A stretch of DNA of 64,000 nt from Colletotrichum lupini (lineage: Eukaryota > Ascomycota > Sordariomycetes > Glomerellales > Glomerellaceae), in the NCBI RefSeq assembly GCF_023278565.1, contig NC_064676.1:1054001-1118000 (forward strand), given 5' to 3'. Position 1 is the first letter of the stretch, and each line of letters opens with the position of its first letter. Under the pieces are notes generated by a model that made no database searches, was not told where the DNA came from, and worked only from the letters and a program-made list of their open reading frames with translations. Both the position numbers and the translations under genes were made by a program. Shown here piece by piece: positions 31,989 through 60,800 of the stretch.

Positions 31989-32587
31989 TCATGATTTGGA
32001 AACTCGTAAGCCGCCTTGAACGCATTGAACCGCGCCTACCAACGCACCGAGTACCAAGACCAAGATTGCCAACCAGAACGTGCACCAAACAACCCTGTTT
32101 CGACGGTCATGCCACCATTGAGATATAGTGCGAGGAGTAGCATCATCATATGCTTGCTTGAGGACGATAAGACGATTTCTCCAGAATCTAAATCTCTCGA
32201 TCCTTCGGGCTTCAGCAGATAGTGTTCCGATGGATCCAAGCCCCCAGTCGATAGGAGGGCATGGCTGTTTGGATAGAAGCTTCTGATACCAAGACCAGCG
32301 TCGGCGTTTGGATATACCTGTGCCGCCAAACTCCGATTCAGGAAAGAGTAGCTGCAGCGTCTTTAGGGTCTCTTCGAGAAACCCAACAGGGTAGATTGAG
32401 CTGGGTGATGATCGTATTAGTGCCAAGTCATCGGATAAATGTTCTCGAATACCCGTCATTCTACTTGCCTTTGATGACATCGAAGGAAAGAAACGTGATG
32501 AAAAACCAACACTTTAATCCCAGACTCTTCCTCAATAAGTAGAAGATGGTCTGCTAAGTTATCCGTAAATTCAACTTAGATACCTCT
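31989..32587 (-). pseudogene. 3' part of a membrane protein gene split by copia element 1
   Basis: This is the continuation of the gene starting at 40732. On the minus strand, 32587-32469 and 32400-31989 follow in phase from codon 174 across the transposon. Reading resumes inside a stretch ending EFTDNLADHL, then VFHHVSFL. A 68-nt intron with a GC-AG border (AAAG|GCAAGT ... CACTAATAC ... CCCAG) restores the frame into YPVGFLEETLKTLQLLFPES. The C-terminus has a WHDRRN motif directly before one strong transmembrane helix (WCTFWLAILVLVLGALVGAV) and ends RVSKS. I recall this C-terminal pattern from many uncharacterised multi-copy ascomycete proteins. One in-frame TAA lies 14 nt inside from the junction and fits CAA to TAA by RIP. 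Rebuilt length is about 350 codons. Confidence 0.75.
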
Positions 32588-32592
32588 AATTG
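32588..32592. repeat. target-site duplication of copia 1, left copy
   Basis: AATTG abuts the left LTR; the right partner at 40211-40215 is AATTA. The single G/A difference fits RIP. Confidence 0.65.
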
Positions 32593-32769
32593 TGTCACGA
32601 GTTATGGCACGCAGCAATGGGCATACGGAGTATAGTAAAAGTGGCTTAACTATCAAAGTGGAAATAGACAAAAGGAGAAGGTCTATATATACGATATCTA
32701 AAATAGATACGTAATTTAGCACGTAACGGGCACTTTATAAGGTGCGATTACTATCCCTATTACGTAACA
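32593..32769 (-). repeat. LTR of copia 1 (3' LTR in element orientation)
   Basis: 177 bp, beginning TGTCACG and ending ACGTAACA. Compared with the right LTR it has about 21 differences, all transitions. Its outer part (near the host gene) keeps C and G; its inner part is mutated to T and A. Confidence 0.9.
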
Positions 32770-35700
32770 TACCCCCTAATTACTACTACTAAGGAGCTAT
32801 TATACTTAAAATAAAATCTCTAAATGCCCTTATAAAGGCCTAATTTAGTTAAATATAAATAAAGGAAAATTAAGTATAAGGGATACGTATCTTTTAAACC
32901 GCGTTTATTATAAATATATCTCTTTATTTAAAATAAATAAAATCCTAACTTAGAATAGCGCGTATTCTACTATTTCTAATATATAAATTACTAAGGGCGA
33001 GGCTACTTAGCTACTTTATATATATTTAAATTCTCGCGGCGTTACTTAGCTATTATTTTTCTTCCTTTTTTTAACCTCTCGTAATTATTATAAATACCCC
33101 TATTTACTACGCGCGCACGCCTACGCCGTCGAATCGTTTACTAATTTTATTCTAAATATAAATATCTAATATATCTAGAAATAATAATAAGTTTTATATA
33201 ATTTTTATAATACCTCTTATATATACGTTATATAGTTTATTAAGAGTTTAAATAGGTAATAATATTAACGAGCCCTTTTAAGTCGTTACCCCCCCCTATA
33301 ACCTCCTACTTACTTACTAAGGCCCGGCTACTAAGCTCTCCCTCTTTAGCTAAGAAGATATTAAGGTTATTAATTAAAACGCCGAGGACTTTATTAAGTT
33401 CGAGGCTCTTTTTAGCGGCTATAATAAGGGTAATAATAAAGTAAATAGTAATAATAAGAGCTCTAATAGGCTTTTACTTACCCCCCCCTCAGAGTTTAAA
33501 AATAAAAATAAAACTAGTTTAGATAATAAGCCCTTTAAGAAGGGTATATCGTATATTTATTATTTTAAAAGTTTATATTTAATATTATTTTAAAGTTTAA
33601 AAAACGCAAGGCTAGCTCTTTTTAAAAAGGTAGTAAGAAGTAAAAGAGAACGCCGAGAAGTTAAGGTACTCCCTATAATAAGTATAGTTCTTTTCGCTAT
33701 TCTAGGCCTATTTAACGTATATTTAGTCCCTAAGAAGCTTAAAAGAGAGGCTCTTAAGGAACGGGAGATCTAATATTTACCCTATTTTAAAATAGCCCTT
33801 TAGTATATTAATACTAAGGATAGTAGTTATTATTTTATAAGAAGTAGTAGCCGGTATGTGTACTATTTTAATAGCCGTTTAGCTAAAGGGTATATTAATA
33901 TACTAATCGTTTTATAGCTAATAGCCCAGGCCCTTATTAAGGCTATTATAAATAGCGCTCCCTCTCTTATAAATATATTATCCTTTTTTATTATTAAAAA
34001 GCGCACTTCTAATTATAGTTTTAATAAAATATTACTAAGCTCCGTAATATTGTCCGCTAGATATATAATAACTAAAGGATATATAAAAACTATATTAGCT
34101 TTTATATAAAAAACTTCTTTAACGCGCGCCCCTAATCCTTTCTTATGCTTATTATAATTATTTATAATTAACTTCTTATCGCGCCGCCCGCTTTTATATT
34201 TTAAGTCGTTAACTGAACGGTTATTTTAGCTCCCGCGCCCCCCGCTACCCCTACTACTCCTAGCTTTATAAACTTTAAGGTATATAAAATACGTTTCTTA
34301 GCGCGCATACTAACCCTCCTCTTTAATAACGCTATATTCTTAGTAATTACGTACTTCGTAAACTAGGAGTTTAAATAATAAGCATAAGCCTAAGTCTTAT
34401 TTTTATATATATATACCTTATAGGGTAAAGTTATTTTAAGAGTTTAGGCCTTTGGGTTATAAAAGGTTTTTATTTTATTTATTTTAGGCCTCCGGGCCGC
34501 ACTCTAAGTTCCGTTTATCGTTTACTTTTAGGTATTAAGTTTTTCTAAGCATAGCCTAAATTAATCATTTTTAACTATTTTAACTATTTATAATAGCTTC
34601 TTGCGTATTATAGAAGTTAAGAAGTATATAAAAATGTTCGAACTTAGCTCGTAAAAGGTTTTTAGTAAGTTTATTTATTAATATATTTTTTATTAATATA
34701 TAAGTAACCTCGAAGCTATTTTTAGTATACTCTTATCTTAGCTATATATTTTATATATCGATATAGCGAAGTTAAGTAGCTATTCTTTCTTTTTCCCCTA
34801 CGACGAGTCGAATCGTTTATTAATTATCGTAGTTAACTAACTATACTTCTCCTAGGTTAAGGGCAATATCCTTAAAAAGGCGCTTCAGAGCTATAGTCTC
34901 TTTTACGGTTTCCTTAAGGTAAAGAAACTTAGCTTTAGTAATTAATGTTATAACCGTCGCCTAGCGTACTAATTTCTATTAAATTAAGCTATTAAAAAGG
35001 AATATTATATATCCCTAAGATAATCGTCGTATTACTTCGTTATTTACGAAGCTAATATCTCTAATTAGAAATAATAATTGCGTACTTAGTATATTACTAT
35101 AATAGAGCGCAAAATATCTTATTATATAGAAATATCGGATATAGTAGTTAATTACTTTAATATAGGTTGCGCTTAGGTTAGTTAGGAACCGTAATAATTA
35201 CGAGTAAGTAAAGGCGACGTCTAGTCTAATTATAATAGCTATATAAAGCACACTCCCGACCTTCTCTTAATAGCTCTTTATTTCCTCCTTTATTACCTAC
35301 CCCTCGTTTAGTTTAAACTCTTCTTAAGGAAGAGGGGTAGCTAGATATAATAAATCTATAAGGTTAAAGCGCTTAGTAACTCGCTCGATATATACGTCGT
35401 AAATAAAATAAACCTTATAAATAATATAGTCTTATAAAATCCGTACTCTAAAGAAGTAATTAATCGGTTTATTCTCTTTAAGGTTAATATATTTTTTTAT
35501 ACCATTAACGATCTCCTAAGCCGCATTTTAGTTATTTTAATAATATAAAATAATAAAGTTATCGACGTAGAATACTAATATTACCTTCTTATTTATAGTT
35601 TAATAAATATAGATCTCCTCGTAATTATATATTATATTTATACTATGGAGTATAGAAGTAAAGGTTTAGAACTAGAGAATTAATAAGTCTCGGAGGCTAT

Positions 35701-38700
35701 ATAGAGCGCGTTAAAGTTTACTTATTTTATTAGTAACCTTATATCCCTCTAAGAATTTAATAATTACTAACTTCTTACTCTTAAGAGGCGCGTTAAGGAA
35801 TACGTTAATAATATTATACTAGTTTACTTTAAGGTCGAATTAAGTAGCTATTACTATTATAAGCCTAAAGGCCTTTGCGGCGAGCGTCGAAGCGTACGTA
35901 TTTTATAAGGGGTTAAGTAGTTATATATCCCCCTTTATATATATACGTACTTTTACCTCGCTAACCTCGTTATTAACGTCGTACTTATAAGTATATACCT
36001 ATTTTAATAAAAGTAAGATCCCTTATTTAGGATTATAGTCGACCTCTTTTTATATATTAATATCCCTTAGCTTTTTTATTTCTATATTTATAATATCCCT
36101 AAGTAACTTTTATAGTTACGGTAGGAGATATTTAATATTACTAAACTTCTTTAGTAAGCTTTAGAAATTAACTTTAGTAAGTCGTAGTTTTTAAACTCCT
36201 CTAGAGCGCTCTAAGTAGGTCTTATAAACTACTCCTTTTACTACTTAATAGAGTATTATATATCCTATACTACTTTCCTTTATAGCTTTTTATTAATTAG
36301 GTATAAAGGTAGAGAAAAAGCAGTCCTAAAGACGGTTATAATAATCGCCGTTTCTTATATTTAAATATAAGAGCGTTGCGAAAATACTATTATCGAAGCG
36401 TTATAAAGGTCTATAGGCCCGGTTTAAACGTCTAGGACCTAACGGAGCTTTACTTAGTACTTAATAAGGTAGTTCTTATAAGCTCTATTCTTATATAATA
36501 ATAGAGGTTTATTATAAGGGTTCCTTATTAACGTCGACTTTAGTATTAAGAATTACTTTTTTATAATCGGTACTTCGTCTACCGCGTGCTTTAGTATTTT
36601 ACTAAGAGCTATTAAAAATTAAAAGCTTAAAAACCTCCGTAATATATATAAGCGCTCGTAAAAAGGACTATAAACTACGTAGAGCCGTTTATAACTTAGT
36701 TACTATATCCCCTTCCTTATCCCTATCCCTAAGCTCGCGCAAGGGGGTTATTTTAGGGGTTAGTAATAATAATAAAACTATATTAACCTCTTTAGCCTTA
36801 TTTACCGTACCCCAGAGTATATTTATTAGTTACTTAGCGTCCTAAATAGTTAAAAATCTAATAATAATACTATCCTTAATTACAAAGTTATTTTAAATAT
36901 TAGTATTTCCGAAGTTTAGATCTACTTCCCTAAGTACTTAAATTAACTTATTATTAATATTAAAAAGTTCTTATATTTTTTAAATTACTAAATTTACTTA
37001 CTTACTTACGATAGCTTATTCTTTATATATAGGATTATAAAAGACTTTTTTGTTAAACTTAATATTCTTTATAATAAATACCTACTTAAGCGCGGGTACT
37101 TAGACCCTATATAAGTTATACGTTTTTAGTATATATTTAACTAGGTATTTTATATACCCGCAGGGAAGTACTTTAAACTCCTTTTAATATATACCCCTCT
37201 TACGATCCCTATAAAGAGGGTATACTTAGTAGCTATATATATAGAAGCTACTAAGATACGGAGTAACCGGTTTAAAATCCCGTACTTAGTAACCCGTCTA
37301 TTACTAACGTTAATACCGCTTCTACTAATTAATTTCTATTATAATAAGCAAATCTCCTTTATTAGCCTCTTATAAAGTAATATTATGAATAAAAATTACC
37401 GCTAGTACTATTTCGTTCTATAAATTCGTAAGGAGGTTTATAAAAAAGCATATCTTACGAGCTTTAGTAATTACGAGTTAACCTACTCTTTTAGCGTTAT
37501 TTACGGGTTCTTTCGTATATAAAAATAGAAGTTCTATTCCAATTCTTAGCTCGCTATACTACGTTTTATATATACGTTTAATATTTATAGTTAAGAGAGC
37601 GGTCTTATTATTATTTTTAAAAAAGTAGATTAAAATCCTTTTTTAATAACAAATCGCTACTTCAAGGCTTTATAATACGAAAAGTACTTCCTCTTCTATT
37701 TTTATCCTTAAAGGGAACTCCCTAAGCTACTTATTATATTTATTAAAAACTATAAGTATATATTATTATTTACTAAGAGATAGTTCGAAGTAGAAGAGAT
37801 CTTAGTATATATAGTACTATAGCTATAAGGCTCTTTTCGAGGGTAATCTTTTTAAAACTACTATTTTAGCTTTAGATAATATACATACCCTATACTTAAC
37901 TTATAATAAAAGTTTAATACGTATACCTTAAGTCTTATATAGTAATTAACGAAGAGCATTAGGTCCGAGATAACTTATTTTAAAGTACTAGAGGAGCGCG
38001 CTATTAGACCTCTTATAAGTACGTTAATATAAGCAACGGAATTTTCTATAGCTAATTAGTAATATAATACTAACTAGGCTTTATAAAATACGCTTAAGGT
38101 TTATAAAAAAAGGATAGAATTAGAAGAGCTTATATTCGAAAAAGACTAGATTATTCTTTTGAATAAGCTACTTTTTAATAATACTCTTATAAAGCGTTCC
38201 CTATTATAAAGTATAATCTAGACCGCAATACTAAAATGCGCTTCTATTTAGTAAAGTCTCTAAGACTATATTAATATAAAATCCCTTAATATAAGTAACG
38301 TTCTAGAGCTTTAGATCGCAGGTTCCCTTTCCCTTAGGTCCGTTTAAAACGCCCTTTATAATATAAGTACTACGTGCGGTAATAAGTAATATAATAGTTC
38401 CTAATTTAATATAGTCTTTATTACTTAATAATACGTAACTCTTAGGTTTAAATAGGCTCTTATTATTAACTAAATATATTATTTTATAACTATTTATTAC
38501 CGTATTTTTAAAAAGGGGGTAAGCGCTACTTATAGGGGTACTAAAAATTACGTTTACCTCTAAGTCTTAACTCTTTATAAGTATAATAACTACGTAGCCC
38601 TCGTCCTAGTTTATTAATAAGCTCGCTATAAGTTAATTAGAAGATCCTTTTAGAAACCTAAGTTTCTTAAGGGTTCTATCGTTCCTTAGCTAACTAGCTT

Positions 38701-40033
38701 TCTTAAGCTTACTATAAAATAATTTCTACTTACTTAATTTAATAATAGCGAGGACTTCTTCCATATAGCTCCTTAGTATTTATATTAATAACTTACTAAC
38801 GTTTCGGCCTATAAGTACCTATTCTAATTTTTAGTACGCCGTAGAGCGCTATAGGTATGCGTAATTATAAAAATATATAACGTTACCCTTATTATTTATA
38901 TCGTTAACTAAATTAGAGCGTTTAGTAAAAATAAAATAAGTCCCTCTTTAACCTAAAAGTCGTTTAGTATATACGTCTTAAGTTACTAAGTTAAATATAT
39001 ACGCAATTTCCTCGAGGGTCCTCGTATACGTTCTAAAGGCTATTAATTCGCTAAAGGTCTTATATATACGTTAGCTTTATATAGGGTTAAGTCTAAACTT
39101 AACTATAACTAAGAAGTTAAGTATAGCAATCTCTTTATTAATTTCTAAAATATTATACGTTTTAGCTTAAAAATAAGTAAACTATTACTCTTTATACTAG
39201 CGTTAAGGGTTAATTCCGGTCCTCGCTTTATTAAAGGCTTATTGGTATTCCTCTCGAACCGCATTCCTTATTACTAGTTCGGGGGGCGTAAATTCCTACT
39301 TTAGATATCTAATAATTCGCTATATACTAAACTTAGTACCGTTCTTAGTAGCTTTTTAAAATACGTATTCGTATAGTATAGTATTAACTAATTTTATTAA
39401 CTACTAAATAAGGACTTTAATATAGGTATTAATAATATTACGTTCGTAAGCTATAAGTTACTCGTATTTAGTATCGAGCTCTTATTATTTTTAAATACTC
39501 TCGAGCGTATAAATCCTCTTTATAAGTACGGTATAAAAATAAATTTATTTACGTAAAGTAAGTAGCATAGTTAGCTTTATAAAAAGAAACCCGGCTTAGT
39601 TTTATAAATTACTTATACTTAAAGAAGTTAAAAGGTTCGTATTAAGAGTTATATTTAGAAGCTATTAACGGAGGATTTCTTAGTTTCTTTAGTTATTCTC
39701 GAACGCCTTATAACGGGCTTAGTAGACTCGTAGTTCTTTTTTATTATAGGTCGTAACTAATCGTCCGAATTCTAAGGGTAAAGTGAGCGCTATAGAGGGG
39801 TTAAGGAATGCGTTAAAATCTAGAGTATCTAAGTCGACGTACTTCTAAACCCTAACGCCCTTACTTATAGCGCGAAGTATATTAAACTATTTAATCTAAC
39901 TATCGTAGCTAGTTAGTTTAGCTTAGGCTAAAGTAGGTACGAGTAAGTTAATTATTTTAAAGAGATCGTAAGAATCGTATTAATAAGTACGTTATCGTAG
40001 TATAGGGTCTTAACTAAGAGCTAGGCTTATAAC

Positions 40034-41125: not shown

Positions 41126-43644
41126 ATGCGTCCTCGAATTCCGCTTGGCTCATTCGTCAATCACTGGCCGCTGAAAGCCACGCCGCCTCGTTTTGCAGGG
41201 CACGCCTTTAGCAAAGTTGCCCTATATCGTCCGCCATGTCCGCGAAGTCGTCACCGGAGGGGAAATGGCACCGTATTTCTGCTCTTAAACCTAGCACTAA
41301 CATTGTCGTTCTCCTTGGGAAATCCCCTCAGGCATGGCATTACATTGGGGTCAATTTCGCGACATACAATGCCTCAATTCAGGCGTCCGAGATGGCCAAA
41401 CCCTCAAGACTCCTGCGGTCACGAGATACTCAATACGATTCTCACGAGGAAAAAGGCATGGTTCGCAAATGGACTAGCCCTTGAAAAGTATTCCACAGAC
41501 TTAGAACCAAATCTTCAAGCAGCCTTGAATAGCCTCGGTCTTGAGCGTGGCGAGATATATGTTCGACTTTACATGATCGGCCGGGCTGAAACAACATCAG
41601 AGCCCACGATCATGGTCTGTTGCATGAACGAAAGCATCAGGTCTCGCGTGAAAAACGAACTACGAGCCAATCCTACACTACGAGCCTGTCGCGAGTTCCT
41701 CGTCCATGGGCTGCCGCACCCGCTTGAGCAACTGCGTCCAGCACGACCTCTGGCAGGAACTAGCAACAACTGTAGTCGTTACGAAGAAAAGCTTGAAACA
41801 GACTTGCCTTCTAATGTAGCTTCGGGCGATGAGGTCTTTTCGCCGACTGCGTCGCTAAGCTTGGGACGCCGTCTGTTCAAGCCTCCAAACGACAACGAGG
41901 CTATTCTTTGGGCCACGGGTGGTGTTTTTCTTCATATCGATGGCGCATGTCTTCAACTCACAGTTGAGCATGGTCCAAGTGACTTAGACGCGGATCAAGA
42001 TTCTCCTTCTACGCTAGAAACGGATCTGGACGCCTTCTCAATCAATGGGAGCGAGGATGACGAAGAAGAGGAATCCTTGCTCACCTACGACGTCTTGAGT
42101 CAAGGGAGTATCACTCCGAAAAGGAGCTTTCTTTCGCAAAGGTCATTTTCGATCAACCGATCAGAGAGTTCTTCATGGGACAACGAAAGCTCCATTGCAG
42201 AGGATTGGCCCTACGGAGACAACCATGATACTGGATCTGATGCTGAACCATCGCGTAACTCAGGGTATCGAACTCGGAATTCTATCGACGATATCCAGCA
42301 CCTCGAAGCTACAAAAAGTGTCGGAGTGATTAGTATTCGCGCCAGCCAAGGCTCATCCCCAGGGCTCGATTACGCCCTTATACACACACCACCCCCAAAG
42401 CCATGCGATTCCGTCAATGGGTTCACTGTTCCGATTGGGAACGCAACGAGATCCCTCTACGTCTGTAGAAGCGACTTATCTCCGCCAGGAGAGAAGAAGA
42501 TACTTATAGTTGGGGATGGTGGATCTATTCGTACCGGAGACCTCCCACCAGGAACGACTCTGTTCAAAAGAACCGGTCTGAACTCCTTCCAACACTTACA
42601 AATTGTGCGACTCATCGGCAGCAACTTCGTCTTTGGCGATTCGGGAGGGGCAGTGCTAGACCAAGAATCAGGCGCCTTCTACGGTCATGTTGTGAGCGGC
42701 AGTCCGGGTACGGGTATAGGTTACCTGGTGCCAGCAACCGAAGTGTTTCAAGATCTGAGCTCGAGGGGCTTTCAAGCAGAACTACATGGACGTCATTTTT
42801 CCCAAAGCGTGCAATACGACATGGATAGATCCAACAGCTGGTTGGATGATCAACTCAAGGCCAGCAAGTTCCCCCGTAGGGATGCCTCAACTCAAACCGA
42901 ATTTGCCCTGCTACCTACGCCGCCCTTGTCGCAGGTGGGCAGTGACTCCTATCAGCCTCGCTTACGAACTCCATATTTCGTAAGTCCCATCGAATTTGGT
43001 CATAAATCATTTAGATCTCGCTGGCCATATTTTGTCGGCCCCGAGAGATCAGTGCTAGCCACTTGGTTCAACGACAGGCTGCTAGACGACCTGCAAAATA
43101 TCGGTGCTGAGGATCTGTGGTCGATGTTCTTCGAATCCAGTGCATCCACATATTCTGGAAAGATCGAAGCGCTTCGGAACTTTTGTCGAACAGCAACACT
43201 GGAATCCCTGGAGATGGGTGTGTCCAAAGTGTCCAAAGTTTCGACGATATGGCTAGATCAGCGAGAACATCATAGCCTCGGAAACCGATCTACCCCGGGA
43301 GCTCTCACAGCCGGAGAACTATTCAAACAATTGAAGCTCAAGGTGCGCTTCTCATCCCACATCTGCAATGCTTTGTATTTGCCGACTGTTCCAAATGCTC
43401 ATCTCTCGCTAGCGATTTGGTGAACGTGGTTATGTTGATGCCGACAGACGAATAATGTACGTTCTGGTACGACAATTCGCCCATCTTCTCAACTTGCTAA
43501 TGCCCACATAGATTTGTGCAGAACCTTGACCCTTCCTCAGTACTGTGCCTTGCGACCACATGTTCAAGGACAGAGCGAGATGGGTTAGGAAATATCATTT
43601 ACAGACATATAATGTTTCGTCCCTATTTTGGCGTCACGCTACGC
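41126..43644 (+). CDS. GDSGG-motif membrane protein, 5' part (exons 1-3 before LINE)
   Basis: Exons 41126-43342, 43413-43456 and 43512-43644 join in phase (introns of 70 and 55 nt). They continue after the LINE at 50202-51870, for a total of about 1298 residues from 41126, or 1217 from ATG 41369, which starts MPQFRRPRWPNPQ and may be the true start. Landmarks in 41126 numbering are YSTDLEPNLQAALNSLGL with GEIYVRLYMIGR (near 143-172), an acidic Ser-rich linker (about 290-390), and Ser506 in FGDSGGAVLDQESGAFYGHVVSG, which looks like the nucleophile loop of a trypsin-fold protease. Next come ALWFxDRLLDDL-like and SASTYSGKIEALRNFCR segments, and NLDPSSVLCLATTC with YRHIMFRPYFGVT in exon 3. Catalytic His/Asp were not located, so activity is unproven. 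All exons are open in spite of the nearby RIP tract. Confidence 0.7.
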
Positions 43645-43654
43645 GTAAGTAAAA
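43643..43654. repeat. target-site duplication of the LINE, left copy
   Basis: GCGTAAGTAAAA, identical to 50150-50161. It overlaps the last two exon bases and the GTAAGT splice donor of the host gene. Confidence 0.9.
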
Positions 43655-46600
43655 CAACCTTCCTCCTATATACTTTTTCTTAGCACGCACTATTAGTATA
43701 GGCCACTCTACTATACTAACCTCCTTAATAAGGCCTATTCTACCCCCCTTTCTCCTATATTAACTATAACTAGCTTAAATAACGGCCGCTATATACTATT
43801 ATAACTATTACCCTCTTTAAATACTTTTAATACCCTCTTAAGCTTTATTACGATTATCTAATTTATATTACTTTAGTCCCTAACTAAAAAACGCCGTATT
43901 CCGGACTTTATTAAAGTAATACTTATAACCCCTAAGATTATAAAAGTTCTAATTATAAGACCTAAGCTAGATACGTTTATTACTACGACTTAGCTTAGAT
44001 TAATAATAATAACCTAACTCTTCCCTAACTACGGAGCGCGTTTTAATAAGATTATAATTATTAATAAGATTAGGACCCGTCTCTTTAGCCTTTATTTTAT
44101 AAGGGATATTACTCTTATAACTATTTAAAAGTCCTTTTAGCTATTAAAAAACTCTAAATATGCTATTATTATAAGCTATTATATTACTAAGCTCGAGGCT
44201 CTTTTTAAAAAACCTTAGTTATTACTTATTAGAACCTCTTAATATAAGCCGGATTATAAAATTATAATAGGCCTCTTTTTTATTAGAGTACTTTTTTAAA
44301 ACTCTAGCTATTATACTTAGCGTCTTATTAATTACTAGCCCTAGGGGCTTATAGCTCGAGCTTTAAATATAATAAGTAACTTATAAAAAAGAGCTAAAAA
44401 CGCACTTCCCTCCCCTAATACCTATATTTTTATTTACTTTAACCCTAAGAATCCCCGCTATTAAGTAAAGGTACGGTTTATTTATAAAAAAGTTATTAAA
44501 AACTACTTACTTAAGGGTAAAAATATTAGCCCAGTAACTAAGGTTTTAACTAGTTACGTACTTACCCTAAAGACCTTAAGAGCATAATAAGCTATACTTA
44601 ATCGCTATACTTAGCTACTTAAACTCTTTAATATAATTATTATTAAAAGATCTGAAATTTAGTCTACTTATATTATTAAAAGTATTAAGACTTAGATCCC
44701 CGGCCTTAATAAGTAACCCCTCGACTTTAGTATATACGTTTAGGACGAGGTTAAAGTAGTAATAAAAATAACCCCCCTGTACTACTAGACCTCTAGCTTA
44801 ACAAATAGCCCCCGCATAACTTATATTATATCTTTCCTAAAACTAATAAAAAGGCCTTTTAATATTTTTAAATTAGTAATAGCCTAACTACTTACTTACC
44901 GACCCCTTTTTAAGTAATACTAAGTCTACTTAAATTAGTATAGCTCTAAGGACTATATTAAAACTTAACGCTACTATTATTATAAAAAGCTAAGATATAA
45001 TAATAACTATACTACGATCGTTCTTTAATACGCAAATTACTAGGGGCTATATATAAGTAACTATATAAGCTATTTTATATACCCTTAAAAAAAAGATAGT
45101 ACTATTATTTACTAAACCTCTTAATAAAAAAAACTCTTATATAAAGTAAGTAGAGAACTTTATATATAAGCTACGAAGCTTAACCTCCCCCTAAGCCTTA
45201 CCCCTAAGTTAGACCTTATAAAGTCCTTAGGTACTTAGCTCTAAAATAAGATTATAAATATTAAAATAGAGAGACTTACTAAGGATATTATTTAGAGGTT
45301 TATAATTATTAATATAGCTATATATAATACTAAAAACTACCTAAGTAAATAAGAATAAACTTACTTAACTATTATAAAGTTAAATAGTATTATAAATTTT
45401 ATTTTAAAAAGTAATAACTACCCCTTTTTTAAGAAATAGGGCTCTAAACTCCCCCCTAAAAATAACTTAGAATACGAAGAGCCTACTTTAAAAAAAAAGA
45501 ATAAAAATAAATATAAAAGCGCCTCGCATAAGCGCTTTATAACTACTTATAACTAGCGTATTTAATACGTATTAAAATTAAAATATTATAAACTAACGTA
45601 TAAAAAAACGGCCGTAAGTATAACTACGCCCTTATTACTACCGAATTCGAATAAATAAACATCCTATTATTATAAGAGCTATAATATAATATAAATAAAC
45701 TATAAAATATTACTAAATCTTACCCTAGCTTTACCTTATACTCGCTAATTTAGAACTAAGTTATAATTATTAATAGACCCCGGGTCCTTATATATATCTA
45801 CCGGACCTTCTTATACTTAGTAACGTTCGATATTATAAAGCTCCCTTACTAAGACTTACTTAGAGTACGTATTTTAAGATATTATATTTTTAATATCTAC
45901 TATACCCTTAATAAAAAGTATATATTAATAATACTTAATTACTAAACCCCCCCGCAAAAGCTATTTATTATAGGGGATCTAAACTTTTATTATACTAATT
46001 AATAACCGGGGACCCCTTTATATACCCCTAAGAACTACTTTATTAACTAAATAAACGGCTACTACCTTATTATACTAAACCCTATAGGGGTCCTTATTTA
46101 TAAAGTGGGTAACGTACTTAACTTAACTATTTTTAATATCCTCTTAGCCCGGACTTAGATTACTAACTATATATATATTAAATTAGATTATAATACCCTT
46201 ATTACGACTATCCCCCTTCTTATTAACTTAAGTAATACGTATTAGCTAAGAAAAAAAAGCAGAGGATTAAACTAAAGAATATATTATAGTTCGTAAAGAG
46301 GGTTAAGGAGCTAACCTAGGTATTATATATTATATATAATACTATATAAGACCTCGATCTAATTATAGAGAGCCTTAATAACGTATTTTAGTATACCTAT
46401 ACTTCTTCCTTTACCCTATACTATATAAGGAGTAGGGGGATAAAATAATAAGATAAATCGTATACTAAGGCTGATAAACGCTTTAAAGCGGTATACGTAG
46501 CCGACCCCTAATTTCTTATTATAACTATAGCTAATTAGTAACGTAATAGTACTATATAAAGGGCTAAGGCCGCTATATAAGCTAGAATAGTCTTTTTTAT

Positions 46601-49600
46601 TAAAAAGGATTTAGATATATACCGAATTATAAATTAGAACCGGCCTAGGCCTTAGGTCTAATCCCCTCTTTTATAAAATAATAAGAATATAGTTACCGAA
46701 CTTACTAAAAAAGCGATACTCTTTTAAAAAAAGCTTTTAAAGCGTATAATTATAAAAGACGACGTATATTTTGACCTTATAATATACCCTTAATAATTAT
46801 TATTTTAAGATCTTATTATTTATTAATACGAAGTAAATAATATAATACTTAGTATAGGAAATACTACCCTTAGTATAAATAATATTATAATTTTAATACT
46901 ACGGGCTTACTAGTTATATATTAATAACTACGTCCGTTATTTTTACTAAGCCTATCTCGTACTTAAATACTACCCTAAGGCCTAGTAAGACGCTAAAGTA
47001 ATAATAATACCGAAGCCTAATTAAAATATACGTACTTATAAAAGCTAGCACCCGATCTTATTTTTAATAACCCTAGAGAAGGGGCTAGAGCGCTTTATAG
47101 CTAAGAAGATATTTTATATTACTATTACTTAAGGCGTACTTAACTTATAAGTAGCCGGGGTACTACCTAAATAATTAACTACGGATATAGCTAAGGTAAT
47201 AGCCTACAATATATAGGCTACTTTTAATAAAAAACTAGTTACTATTATTATTATAATAAATATTAAAAGAGCTTTTAACTTAGTACTATATAACCGGCTA
47301 TATAATTAGCTCTAGGCATAGGGTTAGCTTAAGAATATTATTACCTAAGTATAATACTTTAACTAGTCGCACCGAGCCTCGGTTTATTATAAAAAATACT
47401 AAACTCTTATATCCCCCCTTTTTTACGGTTTATTATAGAGGTTACCGATCTTACTTATTCTTTTTTTATTATATACTAAGTAGATTTATTAAATTAGCCC
47501 GGAGTCCTCTAAATTCGGCTATATTAATAACTATATAATATTAAGCGTTAAAAAGGACCTTATTAAGGCTACCTCCTAGGTATAGTAAATTCTAAATAAT
47601 ACTATTACTTAGGGTAGGGATAATACTATTTAGTTTAATCCTAAGAAAACCGAAGTCCTTTATTTTATAAAATAGACCTCGCCGAGGGCTAGAAATATTG
47701 CCCCCCCCCCTATTTACTACGGTAATAAGGAGATTAAACCTTACGAAAAAGGTATTATAAAATAACTAGGTATTACTTTTAATAAGAAACTACTTTTCTA
47801 TAGCTATATCGCTAATTACCGAAGTAAGGCTAGGTCTATAACTAACTATATTAAAAGCCTTAATAAAGTCTTTAATAATACGCCCCTAGCTACTATATAT
47901 AAAATAATTTATATTATCGTTATTCCTAAGGCCTTATATAGCGCTAAGCTATAGTACCCCGGCCCGACCTAACCTATTTTTAAAATTAGGGTTAATTCCG
48001 AAATACGCGCCTAACTAGAAGTCTAATACGGGCTAAAGTTAGTTATTAAGACCCTCTAAACCTTTATTAATATTACTTTAAGGGGCTCCTTTTTAATATA
48101 GCGGATTATATTAATTATAGCGCTACTGCGCGAGGTAAGTATATTATTAATAAAGCTTTTTTTAAACTCTTTTAGAAACTACTATATTATTAGGCTTTTT
48201 ATACTAAACTACTCTTATCCCCTAGCCTAGAGGATTTATAATTATAAGCTACTATATAACTATAAAAACCCCTCTTACTTAATTATACTTATTTAAATAG
48301 CTAGTTAAGTTAAACGTCCCCTATAACTAGCCTTATTACCCCGCGACTTTTTAATTATAAATAACTTTAATAATATTTAAAAAATAACTAAAATAAAAAA
48401 AATATAAAGCTATTACGAATAATATAAATCTCTCCCTATTACGTATATTATAACCTATATAAATAGGTTATAAATAACTCTAAAGACTACGGGCTTTGGG
48501 TATACTATTTACTAAGGACCGTAACTAATTTATTTTAAATACTACCGCCTCCCCTAAACTAAGGTCTTTAATACTAAAATAAAAGGGGCTATTATAAGTC
48601 TTTACGCGGCGCTAAGGCTTAAGAATAAGTCTATTATAACTATTATAATTTATTTAAATAACTAGGCCGCTATTAAGTACCTAAATAATACCCCCCCCTT
48701 ATCTTTTTAATAAGCTATTCTTAAGTTTAAAGAGCTTATTAAAAACGTTAAGGTCCCCGTTACTTCTTATTAAATACTTAGCTATAAGAGTATTATAGAG
48801 AACGAAATAGTAAACTAATTAGTTAAAAAAAGTATTATTATAAGTCCTTTTAACCTACTTATATACCCCCTAACTATTACTTATATTAAGTATCGTACTT
48901 AAGAAAAATAACTAACTATATTCCGGGGCTAGTAAGAGGATTATTAACTAGACTTTTATAAGGCCCTCGCCTTATTTATTAATAATACGGCGAGCCCCGA
49001 GCTAAAGTTACTTATATAACGCTAGCTCTATTAGCTCCTCTTAGCTAGGTCTAGCTATAAAGACTATACTATATATTACTACCTATATAACTATAATAAT
49101 ACTAACCTCTACTACTTATATAAAAAGAAAAAAGTACTTAACTATATTTATTATTACTATTTAATCTTGCGCAGGGGCACGCTATAGTTTATTTAAACTA
49201 ACTTCGTTTAATATTAACTCAGTAAAGACTAATTTACTTATATTATACTACTATAGAGCTCCTAGTTCTTTATTAATATCTACCTAAAATAAACTAATAT
49301 TTATTAAAATCGGGTTAGTGCGCGCGGAATTAGTTATAATAATACTAAACCCGTATTTATTACTAAATAGTACGGCTATAGTAAAAGTATTAGGGTGCCC
49401 CCCTTAGCCCTTATATTAATAAACCGACGTAATAAGACGTATTATATAGTTTATATCCTAACTAGCTATTTAGAATAGACCTTTTTAAACTAAACCCCCC
49501 TACTATAATAAGTTTACTAATACGGCCGTTAGCTCCCCTAATAAATATTAATCTTATAGGGCGAGTACGTTAATACGGCTCGTTTAATTAGGATACGTAA

Positions 49601-50149
49601 TAAGCTATATACCCCTTCGGCCTTATAAAGCTTATATTTACTTATAATAGCGCTAATAGTAGTATTACTCTTTATTTATATTATATTAATACTTTACTTT
49701 ACTATATAATATAATATATTACCTTATATTATAATATATATTATATACCTCCCCCCCTTACCTTACTATTTTATACTTTATATTATACTACTCTTCCTCT
49801 ACTTACTAAAAGAGCTAGACTTTTTACCTCGGGTAGTAATACTTATTATAGTATAATAACGGTCTTTTTATAAATATATAAAATACTACTTAGTTAGTTT
49901 ATTATATTACTAGCGTAATACTCGAACCTCGCTAAGTACATTTACTCTAAGTTATAAAATAGTACGGGGGGCTATACGTAAATAGAAGGGTTAATTTTAG
50001 ATTATATATTATACTATTTTATAAGAAGGTATTATATAGGCTCTACGGGGCACGGCACACGGTTTTATAATTTTAATATAATATAGTCGCCTTTTACCTC
50101 ACTTAAGGACACTACGGCGTAAAATAGCATAAATAAACAAATAAAATAT
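43655..50149 (+). mobile_element. Tad-like LINE (non-LTR retrotransposon), RIP-degraded, 6495 bp
   Basis: There are no terminal repeats. A 12-bp target duplication flanks it, and an A-rich tail (AAATAAACAAATAAAAT at about 50129-50147) marks the 3' end, so it lies on the + strand. An APE-type endonuclease signature survives at about 45958-45990 (LFIIGDLNFYY). Reverse transcriptase blocks follow at 47000-47900: VIIIPKPN, then LEKGLERFIAKKI, then PLFYGLLQRLPILLILFLLYT, and the catalytic box as FGYINNYIIL (YVDD changed to YINN) at about 47515-47545. RNase-H-like sequence follows near 48500-48800. The 5' 1.9 kb should hold the gag-like ORF1. This order fits the Tad1 clade. CpA/TpG are almost absent except in the first 100 and last 130 bases. 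Stops sit mainly at former Gln/Trp codons. Confidence 0.88.
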
Positions 50150-50161
50150 GCGTAAGTAAAA
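50150..50161. repeat. target-site duplication of the LINE, right copy
   Basis: GCGTAAGTAAAA, a perfect match to 43643-43654. It carries a second copy of the splice donor, directly followed by the rest of the original intron (50162-50201). Confidence 0.9.
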
Positions 50162-50201
50162 GGGAAAACCATCTGTCGTGGCAAATTGGTTACTGACAGA
50201 G

Positions 50202-51870
50202 GAAAAGCCATCAGCTTTGCAAACGTTCGACCTAGAGTTCCACATTCCCATGGTCGCCCTGAGATCTTACGCAGGAAAGGCTCAATGTTCGGGCAGCCCT
50301 ATTAAAGAAGCCCACCAGTCGACTGATGTTTCGTTTCTCTTTCCGGCCAAACATGGATCTTCGACAAGTGGTATTTCTCAATTCCTACACCAAAGCCAAG
50401 TTTCACTCTTGGTCACGGGATTCGACGAGAATCGATGGACGGCCTTTTGCTTTGTACATGCTCCTTCCGAAGACCAAGAAAATTCTATACCACTTATCAA
50501 CGACTCTGACGAAGAGCTACTGACGGATCCAGTGTCCTGTGGCAAGCTACCGGTTGGGATGCCTTGGAATCCAAGAGAATACTTTCTTGCGGTTCTGCGA
50601 GTTCGCCTCAAACACTTGGCTCGGGAGTGGGATCACACCGTACGATTTCTCGAAACAACAATAAGGCATCAGGTAAGTTCATCTCCCCGTTTGAAATTCA
50701 CCTCATTAATGGTGCCCATAGATGTCCTATTGGCCAGCCAAAGGTACCCAAAACCTTGTGTTGAAGAATGACATCCTCGAAGCTCAGGACCGCTTAAGAC
50801 GCAGTCAAGTTCTGATCATGCATCTCATCTACACTATCTCGGGAACCCTGGCAGAGTGGGACAGATTTCAAGAAGACGCCTTGGAGTCATATTTCGACGA
50901 CTTGCAGAACCGAAAATCGTTCTCGCACGATGCTTTCCGTCGTGATATGTTAAAGTCACTTGAGAGCGTCAAGCAATCCGAGACTTCCTTACGAAAGATT
51001 AAGGACCTATGTATAAGCAGAAACTCTCAGTACTCCATGGTAAATTTATTGCGGCATTTCCATTGACACAGTTGCCTTACTAACGCTTTCTGACAGGCCT
51101 ATCAGATTTCAGCGACGAAAGCATATGAACCTACCGTCCCTGGGGATAGGCTCCTTAAATTCATTACAGTGATGGGCCTGGTAAGTCCTCTCCATCTGTG
51201 TGTGGGTGAGACATCTTACTCATTTGATGATCTTTTGTAGCTATTCATGCCACTGTCACTGAGTTTCTCGATCATTGGCTCTGATATCGGTCATCTACAA
51301 CGCACTTGGCCCGTACTTTTAGGAACGACGATCGGTATCATGGTGATAATGTTGCTGTTCATAGTAGGGGCTGAACTCGGACTACCAACCATTTTCAAAC
51401 GCATACATGCCGGGGGATTGCTTCTCAAGAAAAATCTCAAGGAGGGGTTTTGGGCTATGAAAGGTATACTTCGACTGCCAGTGACCAAGTCTTCACATGC
51501 CATGGCAAAGCAAGAGGTATCTTGTCAAGAAGATGGAATCGAACTAGGGACCTTTCATTCACCAAATGTCTTGGACTTGAGGCAACCTGATCCACAGCTC
51601 ATCACCACAGGACCCTCCAATGCTCAGCTGTCCTACCTCAGGCCTTCGAGTCGACAAATTCGTGTCGCACAATGGTCAAAAGAGTACCCAAACATTCTCA
51701 CTCAAGACCCAATCAAGGTCTACCTTCCCCTTCCCAAACCTTCCCTCCAAACCAAAGAGTGCAACAAGCCACAGGCAACGAGGCGCTTCGTACGTCGGCT
51801 GAGAACATCTTATTGGGAACACGAAGTACAACCACGGGACTACCAGGCACCTGAAGGCAGCGTAGTATAA
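50202..51870 (+). CDS. GDSGG-motif membrane protein, 3' part (exons 4-7 after LINE)
   Basis: Exons 50202-50672, 50722-51039, 51097-51180 and 51241-51870 are all phase 0 and follow directly from exon 3 at 43644. The first exon starts EKPSALQTFDLEFHIPMVALRS, which completes the block begun by FGVTLR upstream. A coiled region follows (LKNDILEAQDRLRRSQVL, then DMLKSLESVKQSETSLRKIKDL). Near the C-terminus AYEPTVPGDRLLKFITVMGL leads into two transmembrane helices (LFMPLSLSFSIIG and VLLGTTIGIMVIMLLFIVGAELG). The arrangement of a long helical stem before two C-terminal helices recalls CorA-like membrane anchors (inference). The GMN signature is not present. The last 150 residues are cytosolic-looking, Pro/Gln-rich. 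The intron acceptor before 50202 must be ...CAGAG to keep frame; without splicing, a TGA is met. Confidence 0.7.
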
Positions 51871-54863: not shown

Positions 54864-57800
54864 TTAGCAGTCTTCTACTTTTATAGCAAAAAAGGCTAGA
54901 ATAGGGGCTAGGTCCCCCGCTAGCGAGAACTAGTAGTAGAATCTATAGTTAATCCCCTATTTAGAAGTACCTAAAGCCGTATACTAAAATTTTAACATAG
55001 CTTCCGCTATAATTATTCGTATAGAAATTTTAATATCCCCTCCTTCCGATTACTTCCTAATCTTTTAATATATATAATCTATATACCTAAACTCCTCGGA
55101 AATCGTTAAATCTAGCGTAGTTAAAAAAGAGCTTTTTATTAGTCTAACTATGCCCCGAATACGTATATTTCTCTCTAAGCTAAAGCCCGAGAGGCGTATA
55201 CGTTCGCTAAACGACTTATTACTTATAGTATATTACTATTTTAACTACGTATTACCTATCCTTCTATCTTAACTATAATAATTCCTTTGCTAACGAATTG
55301 TTCGAGGGATTTGTTTAGTATGCTCTTTATAAACCCGTTAGCTAGGTTATCGTCGCTACTAATTTAACGGATCTTATAAAGCTTGCGGCGTTCGTATAAT
55401 TACCTAAGTACTATAATATCTATTATAAAGCGCTTTTCCTTCGTAGTACCTAGCTTAACGAGGTATTTATATAGTAAGTATAAATCTATATAGACTATAG
55501 TAGGGATCTTTAAAACGTCGAGTTATTTAATAATAAGGTCTAAGGTAATTAAAATAGTATAAGCGACGTTAACGCCTACGACTATTCCGTAAACCTCTAA
55601 TACTAGTACGCTCCGGGTGATCCTTTTGCTCTTTATAAAGCTATAGTAAATAATATTATTATTAATCGTAAAGCTCTCGTTAGTCTATTCTTTATTTATA
55701 AAGATAATAATATAACCTAGTTATGAGGTATAATTAGCGTTATTTGCGAATAACCTATTTACGAAGACGAAGAGTTTAGCTATAGTTAGATTTAATAGTA
55801 CGAATATAAGCCCTCGGTCTAAGTAATCTATTTACTATTTAATATAATAGTTTAGCGTAGCGTAGTTAATAAATAACGGATCTACTTAGTATTAAGTAGT
55901 AAACGACGTATTAAAAGCTACTTTTAGTTAATAAATTAATATAATATAGGCACCTCGAGCTCGCTACTTAACGAATTATTATTTAGTATCTAATACCGAG
56001 GGGTTAACTTACTTAAGCTTCTTTTTTTAGTTCTTCTATTTAAGTACTATATTAATACTTTTTAGTAAGATAATCCCGCCGTTAAAGATAAGTAGCTCGT
56101 TAGCTAATAGTTACTACTTTAGTTTAGTTAGTAGCTTAGCGCGCTTAAGCTCGGTTTCTTTTTTTTAGCTAAAAGTCTTATTTAATAGTTTAATAGTATT
56201 ATCGGTTTATATACTAATAATTCCGAATAATCTGCTTTCTCCTATCGAGACTAATAAGTATAGATCGAACGTAGATATTATTATTTAAAGTATTTTTAAA
56301 TAATACTTACTATATATTACTTATTAATAGGTACTAGATTTTATAAAACCGTATAGTAGCTATACGACGTATAGAATAGTACCTTTAGGGTATAAATAAC
56401 GGATCTAAGCTAGTAATCGGGCAAAAACCTTATAATAAAGAGGTTAGCTCGATTATATATATACTTAAGTAATATCTCGTAGCTAGACGACGTGGCCTTC
56501 CCGGATCAGGGTCGGGGCTAGGGCAAGGATTAGACGTTAATTAGTTCTTTAGATTATTAGCGACTACGTAAGGATCTCTTTCTTCCCCTCGTTATTATAC
56601 CCTTATATAATTAAATAAGACTTTTCGATAGGGTTAAGTTTTAAGTTCTTAATCTCGTTAACAAATCGAGACTTAAATATCCTTATATCCCTATGCTTAG
56701 GGCTAAGTTAAACGAATTTAATTACCCCTCTCTTTACTAGTCCTAAAAGCTCCTTACTAGTAGATTCTATAAAAAGTGCTCTTAGGGTAGTAATAATACC
56801 CTTACTACGGAGCTTAGTAGCTAGCTTAAGATTTGCCTCTTTTTTAGATATAAGGTAGGTTATAATTATAAAAATATTACTATAGCCGCGCTATATTAAT
56901 ATTCTTTTAGTCCTCTTACTCCGTAATAAAGGGTCGTCGTTAATTATAATAACGATCTCGTCGAGGACTTTATTTATAATAGTATTATTATTAGTTAGCT
57001 AGTTAACCGCGGGGATTAGTAAGCGGTCGACGTGCTCTATTATTATAGCCGGCGGCTCGGGGTCGACCTCTTCCGAGTACTAGGGTTTAATTATAATAGC
57101 CCAGAAGCTTATTAGGCCGTAAAGTAATTTTACTACGTAAGTAGTACTATTTATTAAGACGAGCTTAAATAGGCCTTTTTATCCCTTACCTTCTTACTAG
57201 ACTTTAACGTCTAACTATAGTAGTAAATTAATAGTATAGGAAATATTTAGTCCGTTTTAAGTAGCCAGTGCCTCGCTCACTTACTTTTTAATATAAAGTT
57301 TACGGACTTCCCTTATTACTTTCTTAACTACCTCTATACGTTAAGTAATATTTAGTAACGGTAGAGATTCGTTAAAAATATATAGAAAAGCTCTAAAAAC
57401 GAAGAGTATAAGAACGAGGCCGTTTAGGCTAATTATATCGTTAACTACTTTAATTATAGCCTAAAGTATAGCCTTTACGCTTATCGATAGGTATTTATTT
57501 TAAATAATATTATATACCCTTTTAAGTACTACGTAGTATTTCTTAGCCTTACCGATACTATTATAAGCTTCGATAAGTACTTCCTTAACTTCAATAAATA
57601 TAGATCTAATAAAAGATTTAAACTTTGCGGTACTAAAGTTCTTATTAATATTTATAATAATCTAGTCTAGCGGACCGAGGTAAACGTCGATTTAATATAA
57701 CTAAAGAGCCTCTTATATATACTTCGTAATTATATCCGCGAGGAACCTTATTATTTAAAAGGAAGTAGTAGTATTAACGACGTAAAGCACTAGTCGGTTA

Positions 57801-60800
57801 GTGCCCTTATAATTTATTAAGTATATTACGTTAATTATAACTTTATAGTTAAAATCGTAATTATTTTATAAAGTGAATTTAAATCGGCTAGAGGTAGTAG
57901 CGTTAAGTTAATATTATTAGCAAATCTTCGTAAGCTTTTTAAGGGCTGCGATTTCTATATCGTTACTAGACTACTAGAGTAGCTTTAAGAAACGAGGAAC
58001 TAAAGGGTAGCCGAAGCGCCGATATAAGCGGCGTAATTCGCCCTCCGTTAGGTAGTTAGTAATAGCTTTTTTATTATTAAGGAGCAGAAGCTAAGGGTAT
58101 CCTTATTTATAAATAATAAGTACTATAATATCTCCCTTAATTAATAAGTTATTAACATTATTAAAGTATACTCCTAGCTTATTTATGTCCCTTAGGTAGT
58201 ATAAGAAAGGAGTATTAGTTAATAAGATATAAAAAGTAATATTACTAAATAGGGTGCTAACGACCGTAGATCTTAATAATCTTACGGGTTTATTATTACC
58301 GAATCGAATACCTACTTCGCCGGCTCTAAAGGTATTAAGAGTAACTTCGGGTCGTTACTATTATAATACGAGGAGTTAAGGGTAGCCCGTAGTTAAGAAT
58401 TCCGTAGCGCTAGTATTAAGTATAATACTTTAAAAGTCCCCTAACGACTACCTCCCGTCTAATAAGAAGGAGGTCGTTAGTTCCGTAAGCTTAGTTAACT
58501 CGTCAATAGAAGTAGTACTAATAAGGCTATGCTCTATTACTTAAGTAGCGAGGATATTTATAAAGGTTCTGCCGTTAGTAATAGTTATAAGGTATATTAT
58601 TAAGATCTAGACTTCGTCCTCGTAGTTATCTTTATAGTTAAAGTTAAGGCTATTAAAATATTAGATTATAGTATTATTATCGTCGTTATTATTAGTAGGG
58701 GCGGTTCCCTTATAGAAGGCGAGGAACTATAAGTATAAGCTCGGTATAAATCTCTTATTTCTTTCTTTATTATTTTTATATTTCTTATATACCTAACGTC
58801 GTTCTTCCTCTAAGTACTTAGTTAACTAATAGCCGGTCTTATAATAAATAAAATACTTTTTATTAATAATACCGCGGCCGCGTTAATTCCGTTTATTAAA
58901 TCGGGTCTTTTTACTAGAGCTACCGTAAGTATAGTCGGTTTAGTAAGTAGCGGGGACCTCTTCGTTATTAGTACTATTTTAGAGATATTATTACTACTTA
59001 TTACGGTCGCGCTCTCTCTTTATAGTATTAATTAAAGTACTAAACTAGTGGTAAATATTAGTAAATATAGGTACTAGGTTAAGTATAGTAAGTCTATATT
59101 TTAGTATACTACTTACGTAATAGAGGAGTTAGTCGCTTATATTAAAGATAGATCCCTAGGTAGCTAGTACCTCGTAGAGGATTATAATACGGTTAATTAG
59201 CGCTTATAAAATCTATTAGTTCGACTTACCTAGGTTCTTACGAACTATAGAGTATTAGTAGAGGTTATAAAGCTTAGCGAGGTAGTTCTAACGGCTCGTA
59301 GGTAGCTTAAAGTATTCTTAGGTCCTCTAATATATTACGTCGAAGCTAAGCGGGTTAGAGGTACTACTAAGTTAGTTAAAATAGAAAGTTAACGCCCTTT
59401 TTTTAAGTATATTTAGGAAAGTACCGGAATAGTATCGTTTACTAATTCCTGCCCGTTAGTATAGTACTTTAAAAATCCGAAGCTTCTTATTAAAAATATC
59501 GTACTTCTTACTACTATACTTATTTTTATTATTATAGAGCTTAGCGAGGTTAATTAATTAGTAGGTATTAAGTATAATATCGTCTTTAGTTTTTATATCG
59601 AAGTATAATATCTAACGGGGTAGATTTTGTTATTAAGTAATAATGACTTTATTCTCTAGTTCTTCCTCCTCTTTTTCTAAGAGAGGCGGTAGGTCGGTCG
59701 GTCGATAATAAGGCTAAGGTTAGTATTTTAATTACCGGGATTGAGCGAGTTAGGGTTATACGGATTCCCTTACTATCTCTCTAGCATATTAAATAAAATC
59801 GTTAGTATTTATTAGCTACGGGAGTAGTAAGTAAAAGAAATAAGGATTATAATATAATATATTAAAGTATTTAGTACGGCTACGGTAAGCTACGATCTCT
59901 TTAAAAGTCTAAGTAGGGAAGTATTAGGTATTAAGGGCGCTAGCGATCTTTTTTATTATTTAATTACGATCTCTAATCGTTAAATTAATACCGTTATTTA
60001 TAAGGAAGTCTCTTAGCTTCTTAAGAATCGCACTTTTTACTCTTAAGAAGTCCCCTACTTCCTAGCTTTAGAAGTCGGTCTTAAAGTCCTTTTATAGCTC
60101 CTTACCCGTTAGGCCGTCTCGATAGTAATATCTTATTATATAGAGGATAAAAGTATTAAGCTTTTTGTTATTTATAAGGGCGGGTATAATATTAAATAAG
60201 CCCTATTAAGTTAGGTTAACGTAGTCTTATTAGTAAATTAGAATTAGATATAGTTCCGTAATTTAAGAATATAAGTAGGCCGGAGGTAATATTAACTAAT
60301 CGTTAGACCCTTCTTACTTATTACTAAGGCCGGCGGTTATTATAGTATATTTACGAAGTAAGTTATATAATAAAAGATTATTATAAGATATAATCGTCGT
60401 ATTATAATTATAGTATAACGTTAGTTAGGTTAGAAAGAGTAATAGGTCGGTCGTAGTAATTATTTTAATAGTAGTAAGCGGGCTATTATTATTAGTTAAA
60501 AAATTCTGCTCCTTTAACGAGGTATATAAACGGAAGGTTACTAAGGTCGGCAAAAGGTTATAAAAAAGAAAGAAAGGTCTTTTATAACCGTACTTCTAAT
60601 AGTAAATAAAGGATTCCGTCGGCTACTAATTAGCGATTCTTATTAGCACTTCTCGTACTTTATTTTACTAGTCTAGTCTTAGAGTTTCCGTTAGGTTAAA
60701 AAGAGGTAGATTTATTAGTAATATAAAATAGATCCTTATTATTACTACTATTAAGATCTTTTCTTTTCTTTAGTATCTCGGAATACTTCGCTATTAATAA

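What the first reader, a model, noticed from the sequence alone, without database searches (positions are those of the whole stretch)
43643..50201. LINE inserted exactly on a splice donor, with the donor copied in both target duplications
The 12-bp duplication GCGTAAGTAAAA contains the exon end (GC) and the GTAAGT donor of an intron that was originally 50 nt. After insertion the left copy still gives exon 3 a donor, and the right copy restores donor plus branch and acceptor. All seven exons of the host gene stay open and in phase. The gene may therefore still be expressed with a 6.5-kb RIP-mutated, AT-rich intron, which would be exceptional in a filamentous fungus, or by use of cryptic sites.
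Basis: partly seen in the sequence, partly recalled or inferred. Interest (0 to 1): 0.8.

Follow-up and report, generated by a model that had tools for sequence, protein, structure and literature searches.

The report
LINE insertion splitting a fungal gene
A jumping gene landed, probably by chance, on an intron's start signal in a fungal gene and copied that signal on both sides; it most likely just broke the gene, because splicing the whole element out as a giant intron is improbable.

Summary
The anatomy is real. A + strand LINE with RT and RNase H homology (43655 to about 50149, 6.5 kb, heavily RIP-mutated) sits between two exact copies of GCGTAAGTAAAA (43643-43654, 50150-50161) that carry the GTAAGT donor of a host intron. 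The seven exons are open and in phase, but relatives place the acceptor at 50207|50208, so the ancestral intron was 56 nt, not 50. The genome fits Colletotrichum lupini by size (inference).

The donor hit looks like chance: of 26 copies with a called duplication, only this one carries GTAAGT. The identity of the two copies says little, because this 12-mer has no CpA or TpG for RIP to attack.

The proposed 6.5-kb functional intron is not supported. The right copy re-creates the complete 56-nt intron beside its own acceptor, so a read-through RNA should lose that short intron and keep the LINE. The left donor faces a nearby cryptic branch/acceptor (TACTAAC, AG ending at 43732), and both predicted 5' products stop within 12 or 23 codons. 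The likeliest outcome is a split gene. No RNA data and no relative's DNA were available, so the outcome is inferred. This is an ordinary insertion with a neat footprint.

The parts
41369..43342 (+). Host gene exon 1 from the methionine at which P0001 starts (the frame is also open upstream to 41120); trypsin-like region with GDSGG
   Evidence: 98% identity (643/658) to C. abscissum P0001; open frame
43413..43456 (+). Host gene exon 2 (44 nt)
   Evidence: RFGERGYVDADRRII matches P0001
43512..43644 (+). Host gene exon 3, ends ...FGVTLR at the donor
   Evidence: carries three amino-acid differences from P0001 that can be read as RIP-type
43643..43654 (+). Left copy of the target-site duplication GCGTAAGTAAAA (exon end GC + donor GTAAGT)
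43645..43732 (+). Possible cryptic intron: left donor GTAAGT to TACTAAC (A at 43719) and AG ending at 43732 inside the LINE
   Evidence: consequence translated (inferred, no RNA)
43655..50149 (+). LINE (endonuclease / RT / RNase H type, Tad1-like by inference), RIP-mutated, with a short AT tail at the 3' end
   Evidence: 5' and 3' ends shared with copies in the same genome; RT-RNase H region matches P0025 at E 9.5e-100
50150..50161 (+). Right copy of the target-site duplication
50152..50207 (+). Complete 56-nt ancestral intron re-created by the right copy: GTAAGT, CTGAC branch (A 50196), AAG acceptor
   Evidence: acceptor from P0001, P0023, P0004 and paralogous loci L103, L104
50208..50672 (+).
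50722..51039 (+). Host gene exon 5
51097..51180 (+). Host gene exon 6
51241..51870 (+). Host gene exon 7, hydrophobic CorA-like tail (LFMPLSLS...) and stop
   Evidence: the same motif in C. godetiae P0023, whose best Pfam match is CorA at E 6.5e-5, below Pfam's curated cut-off

Best explanation
An endonuclease-type LINE inserted by target-primed reverse transcription into a single-copy host gene, and its 12-bp target happened to include an intron's 5' splice site. The duplication therefore put one donor before and one after the element. RIP later mutated the element. Because the right-hand copy restores the complete original 56-nt intron, the spliceosome would pair the near donor with its acceptor and leave the LINE in the RNA, while the left donor either stays unspliced or uses a cryptic acceptor inside the LINE's 5' end; either way translation stops 12 or 23 codons after exon 3. 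The gene is most likely split and no longer makes the full protein. Shown: element, duplication, RIP, gene structure, absence of a donor-like target in the other copies. Inferred: insertion mechanism, order of events, splicing outcome.
For: Exact 12-bp duplication at element ends. 25 other same-family copies with called duplications of 9-14 nt (13 of 26 are 14 nt) and CAAA/TAAA tails, as expected for LINE insertions. GTAAGT in 1 of 26 duplications; at the strictest donor score 1 of 26 insertion sites against 2 of 209 control windows in the flanks. RT-RNase H homology to P0025. Complete 56-nt intron at 50152-50207 with a branch A 11 nt from the AG. Cryptic TACTAAC + AG 13 nt further on, 88 nt from the left donor; ten branch+AG combinations in the first 700 nt; 205-229 stops per forward frame in the element. 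Products of retention and of cryptic splicing stop after VSKTTFLLYTFS or after 23 residues.
Against: No transcript data: the splicing outcome is untested. All seven exons are still open and in phase, which a long-dead gene might not keep. At a lenient donor score the insertion sites are somewhat richer in donor-like words than the controls (6 of 26 against 25 of 209; not tested for significance), so a weak target bias cannot be excluded.
Confidence: 0.85

Rival explanations
1. The gene is still expressed in full: the left donor at 43645 is spliced over 6,563 nt to the acceptor at 50207, skipping the right donor, so the LINE is a giant intron.
For: Donor, branch and acceptor are all intact; exons in phase; the exon-3 end is unchanged.
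Against: A near donor of the same sequence sits 56 nt from the acceptor; other host introns are 49-70 nt; a Sordariomycete with measured introns averages 102.3 +/- 112.2 nt, median 72 (PMC4324775, passages); the element carries 16 CTAAC words and many possible decoy acceptors.
Confidence: 0.05
2. Both halves live on separately: exons 1-3 give a truncated protein without the hydrophobic tail, and exons 4-7 are transcribed from a start inside the LINE's 3' end, with the 56-nt intron removed normally.
For: Both halves keep open frames, and the short intron is complete. A protein corresponding to the 3' half alone is annotated in C. godetiae (P0023, 485 aa, starting 30 residues before the junction), though that may be a gene-model artefact.
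Against: No promoter evidence; heavily RIP-mutated DNA is usually silenced (recalled). The 3' half differs more from P0001 than the 5' half does (260/278 against 699/717 identical), but it is also the faster half in P0002 and P0004, so this tells nothing either way.
Confidence: 0.12
3. The LINE targets splice donors or donor-like words, so the position is selected, not chance.
For: Donor-like word at score 5 or more in 6 of 26 insertion sites against 25 of 209 control windows.
Against: GTAAGT in only 1 of 26 duplications; at scores of 6.5 or more 1 of 26 sites against 8 of 209 controls; no shared word is apparent among the duplications (by eye).
Confidence: 0.04

Closest known systems
Fungal Tad1-type LINE insertions (LINE-Tad1 is reported from C. 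lupini; PMC11645255, passages and part of the Results seen)
   Same: Single + strand element of about 6.5 kb with RT and RNase H homology, short A-rich tail, target-site duplication of 9-14 nt, many copies, RIP-mutated
   Different: Nothing in the element is unusual; only the landing place, on a splice donor, is. Clade membership was not tested with a tree
Introners / transposon-derived introns (PMC9860276, passages seen)
   Same: A transposon whose target duplication contains a splice site
   Different: Introners are short (median lengths 30-654 nt in that paper) and are themselves spliced introns; the paper reports ascomycete Introner families without TSDs. Here a 6.5-kb LINE falls into an existing intron's donor and splicing is not shown
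Transposon insertion in an intron of a fungal gene giving truncated or chimeric transcripts (the Fot1/niaD case; recalled, the search found no paper on it)
   Same: TE in or at an intron, probable truncation inside the element
   Different: DNA transposon in that case; here a LINE with the donor itself duplicated

Membership tests
Endonuclease-type LINE (Tad1-like) | Target-site duplication at the element ends | tested here: met
   12/12 identical here; called in 26 of the 27 copies with both ends; one (C3:6598k) gave none
Endonuclease-type LINE (Tad1-like) | Reverse transcriptase and RNase H | tested here: met
   X-filled frame-2 translation matches P0025 (1243 aa; Pfam PF00078, PF14529, PF00075) at 31% identity over 93%, E 9.5e-100. 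Pfam scan of pieces of the element itself gave 0 families
Endonuclease-type LINE (Tad1-like) | APE-type endonuclease domain in the element | tested here: inconclusive
   A stretch with FIIGDLNFYYT in frame 3 looks like one by eye and P0025 bears PF14529, but the stretch gave no Pfam match
Endonuclease-type LINE (Tad1-like) | Place in the Tad1 clade on an RT tree | not tested
   No tree built; the name follows from LINE-Tad1 being reported in C. lupini
RIP-mutated repeat | TpA excess with CpA/TpG depletion | tested here: met
   1.78 and 0.07 in the element against 0.58-0.80 and 1.11-1.22 in five host exons
Functional spliceosomal intron / Introner | Removed from mature RNA | not testable with these tools
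   No RNA data held; the predicted outcome is that it is not removed
Functional spliceosomal intron / Introner | Length within the organism's intron range | tested here: not met
   6,563 nt against 49-70 nt in the same gene; median 72 nt in Trichoderma. The whole-genome intron distribution of this species was not measured

The most novel reading that the evidence does not exclude
A filamentous ascomycete gene stays functional by splicing a 6.5-kb RIP-mutated LINE as an intron, choosing the far donor over an identical donor 56 nt from the acceptor.
Probability: 0.05. Interest if true: 0.65.

Novelty: new member of a known kind. Interest (0 to 1): 0.22.

Why it matters
It is a clean natural test of intron recognition in a short-intron fungus: two identical donors, one 56 nt and one 6.5 kb from the same acceptor. 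If the far one were used, ideas about intron definition in filamentous fungi would need revision. As an ordinary insertion it documents a gene lost to a LINE. It also shows that identity of duplication copies is a poor clock in RIP genomes when the duplicated word lacks RIP targets.

Tried and rejected
Target preference for donors: rejected on 26 duplications; the donor score frequencies were recalled, not measured. RIP spilling into exon 3: differences from P0001 that read as RIP-type are 3 of 4 within 150 bp of the element and 3 of 32 beyond (Fisher 0.010; 4 of 6 and 2 of 30 at 200 bp, 0.003; 4 of 10 and 2 of 26 at 400 bp, 0.04). The cut-offs were chosen afterwards, the direction of change is assumed, and one of the three nearest (Y792) is also Y in P0023 and P0004, so I keep this as a weak hint. 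Support comes from the family: 7 of 10 mismatches between left and right duplication copies are RIP-type. Faster change of the 3' half as a sign of lost function: rejected, because that half is faster in the whole family. Pfam naming of the LINE pieces failed. The RVT_1 scan of the genome (150 of 309 candidates scored) did not list this element. A named solved structure, a fold prediction and a search of metagenome contigs were not attempted. Literature: no paper held all six terms LINE, inserted, splice donor, target site duplication, intron, RIP; searches gave no report of such a case in their listings (listings only, apart from passages of PMC4324775, PMC2851567 and PMC9860276). This is not a claim that none exists.

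Dropped rows: of 28 5'-end matches and 34 3'-end matches, this copy plus 26 others were paired by position; C3:6598k was dropped (no duplication found); one 5' end (C1:6737k) and seven 3' ends without a partner were fetched (L091-L098) but not analysed. In C8:156k, C3:3436k, C9:904k and C10:2272k the duplication was read by eye because the script's choice was wrong or not flush with the element.

Full report
What is there. The window lies in a 63,443,975-base assembly of 12 contigs, the smallest one seen 523,226 bases. The closest protein to the host gene is from Colletotrichum abscissum, and Colletotrichum lupini assemblies reach 63.4 Mb with an accessory chromosome of up to 0.52 Mb (PMC11645255, first third of the Results seen). 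C. lupini is therefore the likely source; this is an inference.

The element. Two exact copies of GCGTAAGTAAAA flank 43655-50149 and occur nowhere else in the window. The inside is 28% G+C with TpA/ApT 1.78 and (CpA+TpG)/(ApC+GpT) 0.07, a strong RIP signature, against 0.58-0.80 and 1.11-1.22 in five host exons. The 5' end matches 27 and the 3' end 33 other places in the genome (lower bounds). An X-filled translation of the RT-RNase H part matches P0025, a 1243-aa protein with Pfam PF00078, PF14529 and PF00075, at E 9.5e-100. Pfam itself does not recognise the mutated pieces. Frames 1-3 carry 219, 205 and 229 stops in about 2,165 codons each.

Is the landing place special? I paired both ends for 27 copies including this one and could call a duplication for 26: thirteen of 14 nt, seven of 13, five of 12, one of 9. 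Only the window copy contains GTAAGT. With a rough donor score (recalled frequencies) 1 of 26 sites passes the strict thresholds, against 8, 4 and 2 of 209 control windows at 6.5, 8 and 9; at the lenient threshold of 5 it is 6 of 26 against 25 of 209. The donor hit therefore looks like chance. Nine of the 26 pairs differ between left and right copy; 7 of these 10 mismatches are RIP-type, so RIP reaches past the element's ends. The window's duplication contains no CpA or TpG, so its perfect identity does not show youth or selection.

The host gene. Seven exons, 41369-43342 (the frame is also open upstream), 43413-43456, 43512-43644, 50208-50672, 50722-51039, 51097-51180 and 51241-51870, read open and in phase. 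Exon 1 is 98% identical (643/658) to P0001. The junction is VTLR|PSALQTF; P0001 has VTLR|SSALQTF, P0023 VAIR|SPGLRTF, and P0004 a stretch of the same length. Paralogous loci L103 and L104 have GT...AG interruptions of 69 and 53 nt at the same residue. The gene has no close paralogue: P0001 finds six matches in this locus and four elsewhere at 28-33% identity. Function is unknown; relatives give sub-threshold Pfam matches to Trypsin_2 (P0005, E 0.0039) and CorA (P0023, E 6.5e-5). The annotated P0001 lacks 11 residues and the hydrophobic tail that the window and P0023 have, so the relative's model, or gene, is itself imperfect.

How it most likely works. The duplication gave the locus two donors. 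The right one, 50152, stands in a complete 56-nt intron; the left one, 43645, is 6,563 nt from the same acceptor. The host's other introns are 70, 55, 49, 57 and 60 nt (with the exon-6 start corrected). Trichoderma introns average 102.3 +/- 112.2 nt, and intron definition is said to predominate in fungi. The short intron should therefore win whenever RNA polymerase crosses the LINE, which leaves the LINE in the RNA. The left donor has a good cryptic partner inside the element: TACTAAC with A at 43719 and an AG ending at 43732, an 88-nt intron. Unspliced, exon 3 reads VSKTTFLLYTFS then stop; cryptically spliced, 23 residues then stop. In both cases everything encoded by exons 4-7 is lost. These are predictions; no RNA was examined.

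Against this reading. The open frames of all seven exons are what one expects of a live gene or of a recent insertion. Three amino-acid differences in the last 60 bp of exon 3 can be read as RIP damage, but one may be ancestral. The faster change of the 3' half (260/278 against 699/717 identical, p 0.004) is seen across the family and says nothing about function. No relative's DNA could be read, so absence of the LINE in C. abscissum is inferred from its uninterrupted protein model only.

Verdict. The functional giant intron is improbable (about 5%). It is a standard LINE insertion that most likely split a gene of unknown function; the doubled donor makes it a tidy test case, not a new kind of system.

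Noticed in passing
window 32500-39500: AT-rich RIP-mutated block (TpA/ApT 1.71); a 501-base piece finds at least 40 similar places in the genome (40 of 134 candidates scored), at 90-93% identity apart from itself. Element type not identified.
   Followed up: partly
window 55000-61000: Second AT-rich RIP-mutated block (TpA/ApT 1.80); a 501-base piece finds at least 40 places (40 of 83 candidates scored), at 86-91% identity apart from itself. Element type not identified.
   Followed up: partly
window 41369-43342: The host protein carries GDSGG, with LTVEH and LDYAL before it, like a degenerate trypsin-like protease (motif reading recalled); relative P0005 gives a sub-threshold Trypsin_2 match and P0023 a sub-threshold CorA match.
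   Followed up: partly
L103, L104, L106 (C9:3.42 Mb, C9:3.44 Mb, C1:5.24 Mb): Distant paralogues of the host gene's exon-4 region (28-33% identity); L103 has an in-frame TAG in the match.
   Followed up: partly
C. abscissum P0001: Its annotated protein lacks 11 residues and the hydrophobic tail and ends in another frame of exon 7, suggesting a wrong gene model or a decayed gene.
   Followed up: no
other copies of this LINE, e.g. C9:3013k-3026k and C8:257k-271k: Several copies span 9-21 kb between their ends, not 6.5 kb, which suggests later nested insertions (positions).
   Followed up: no
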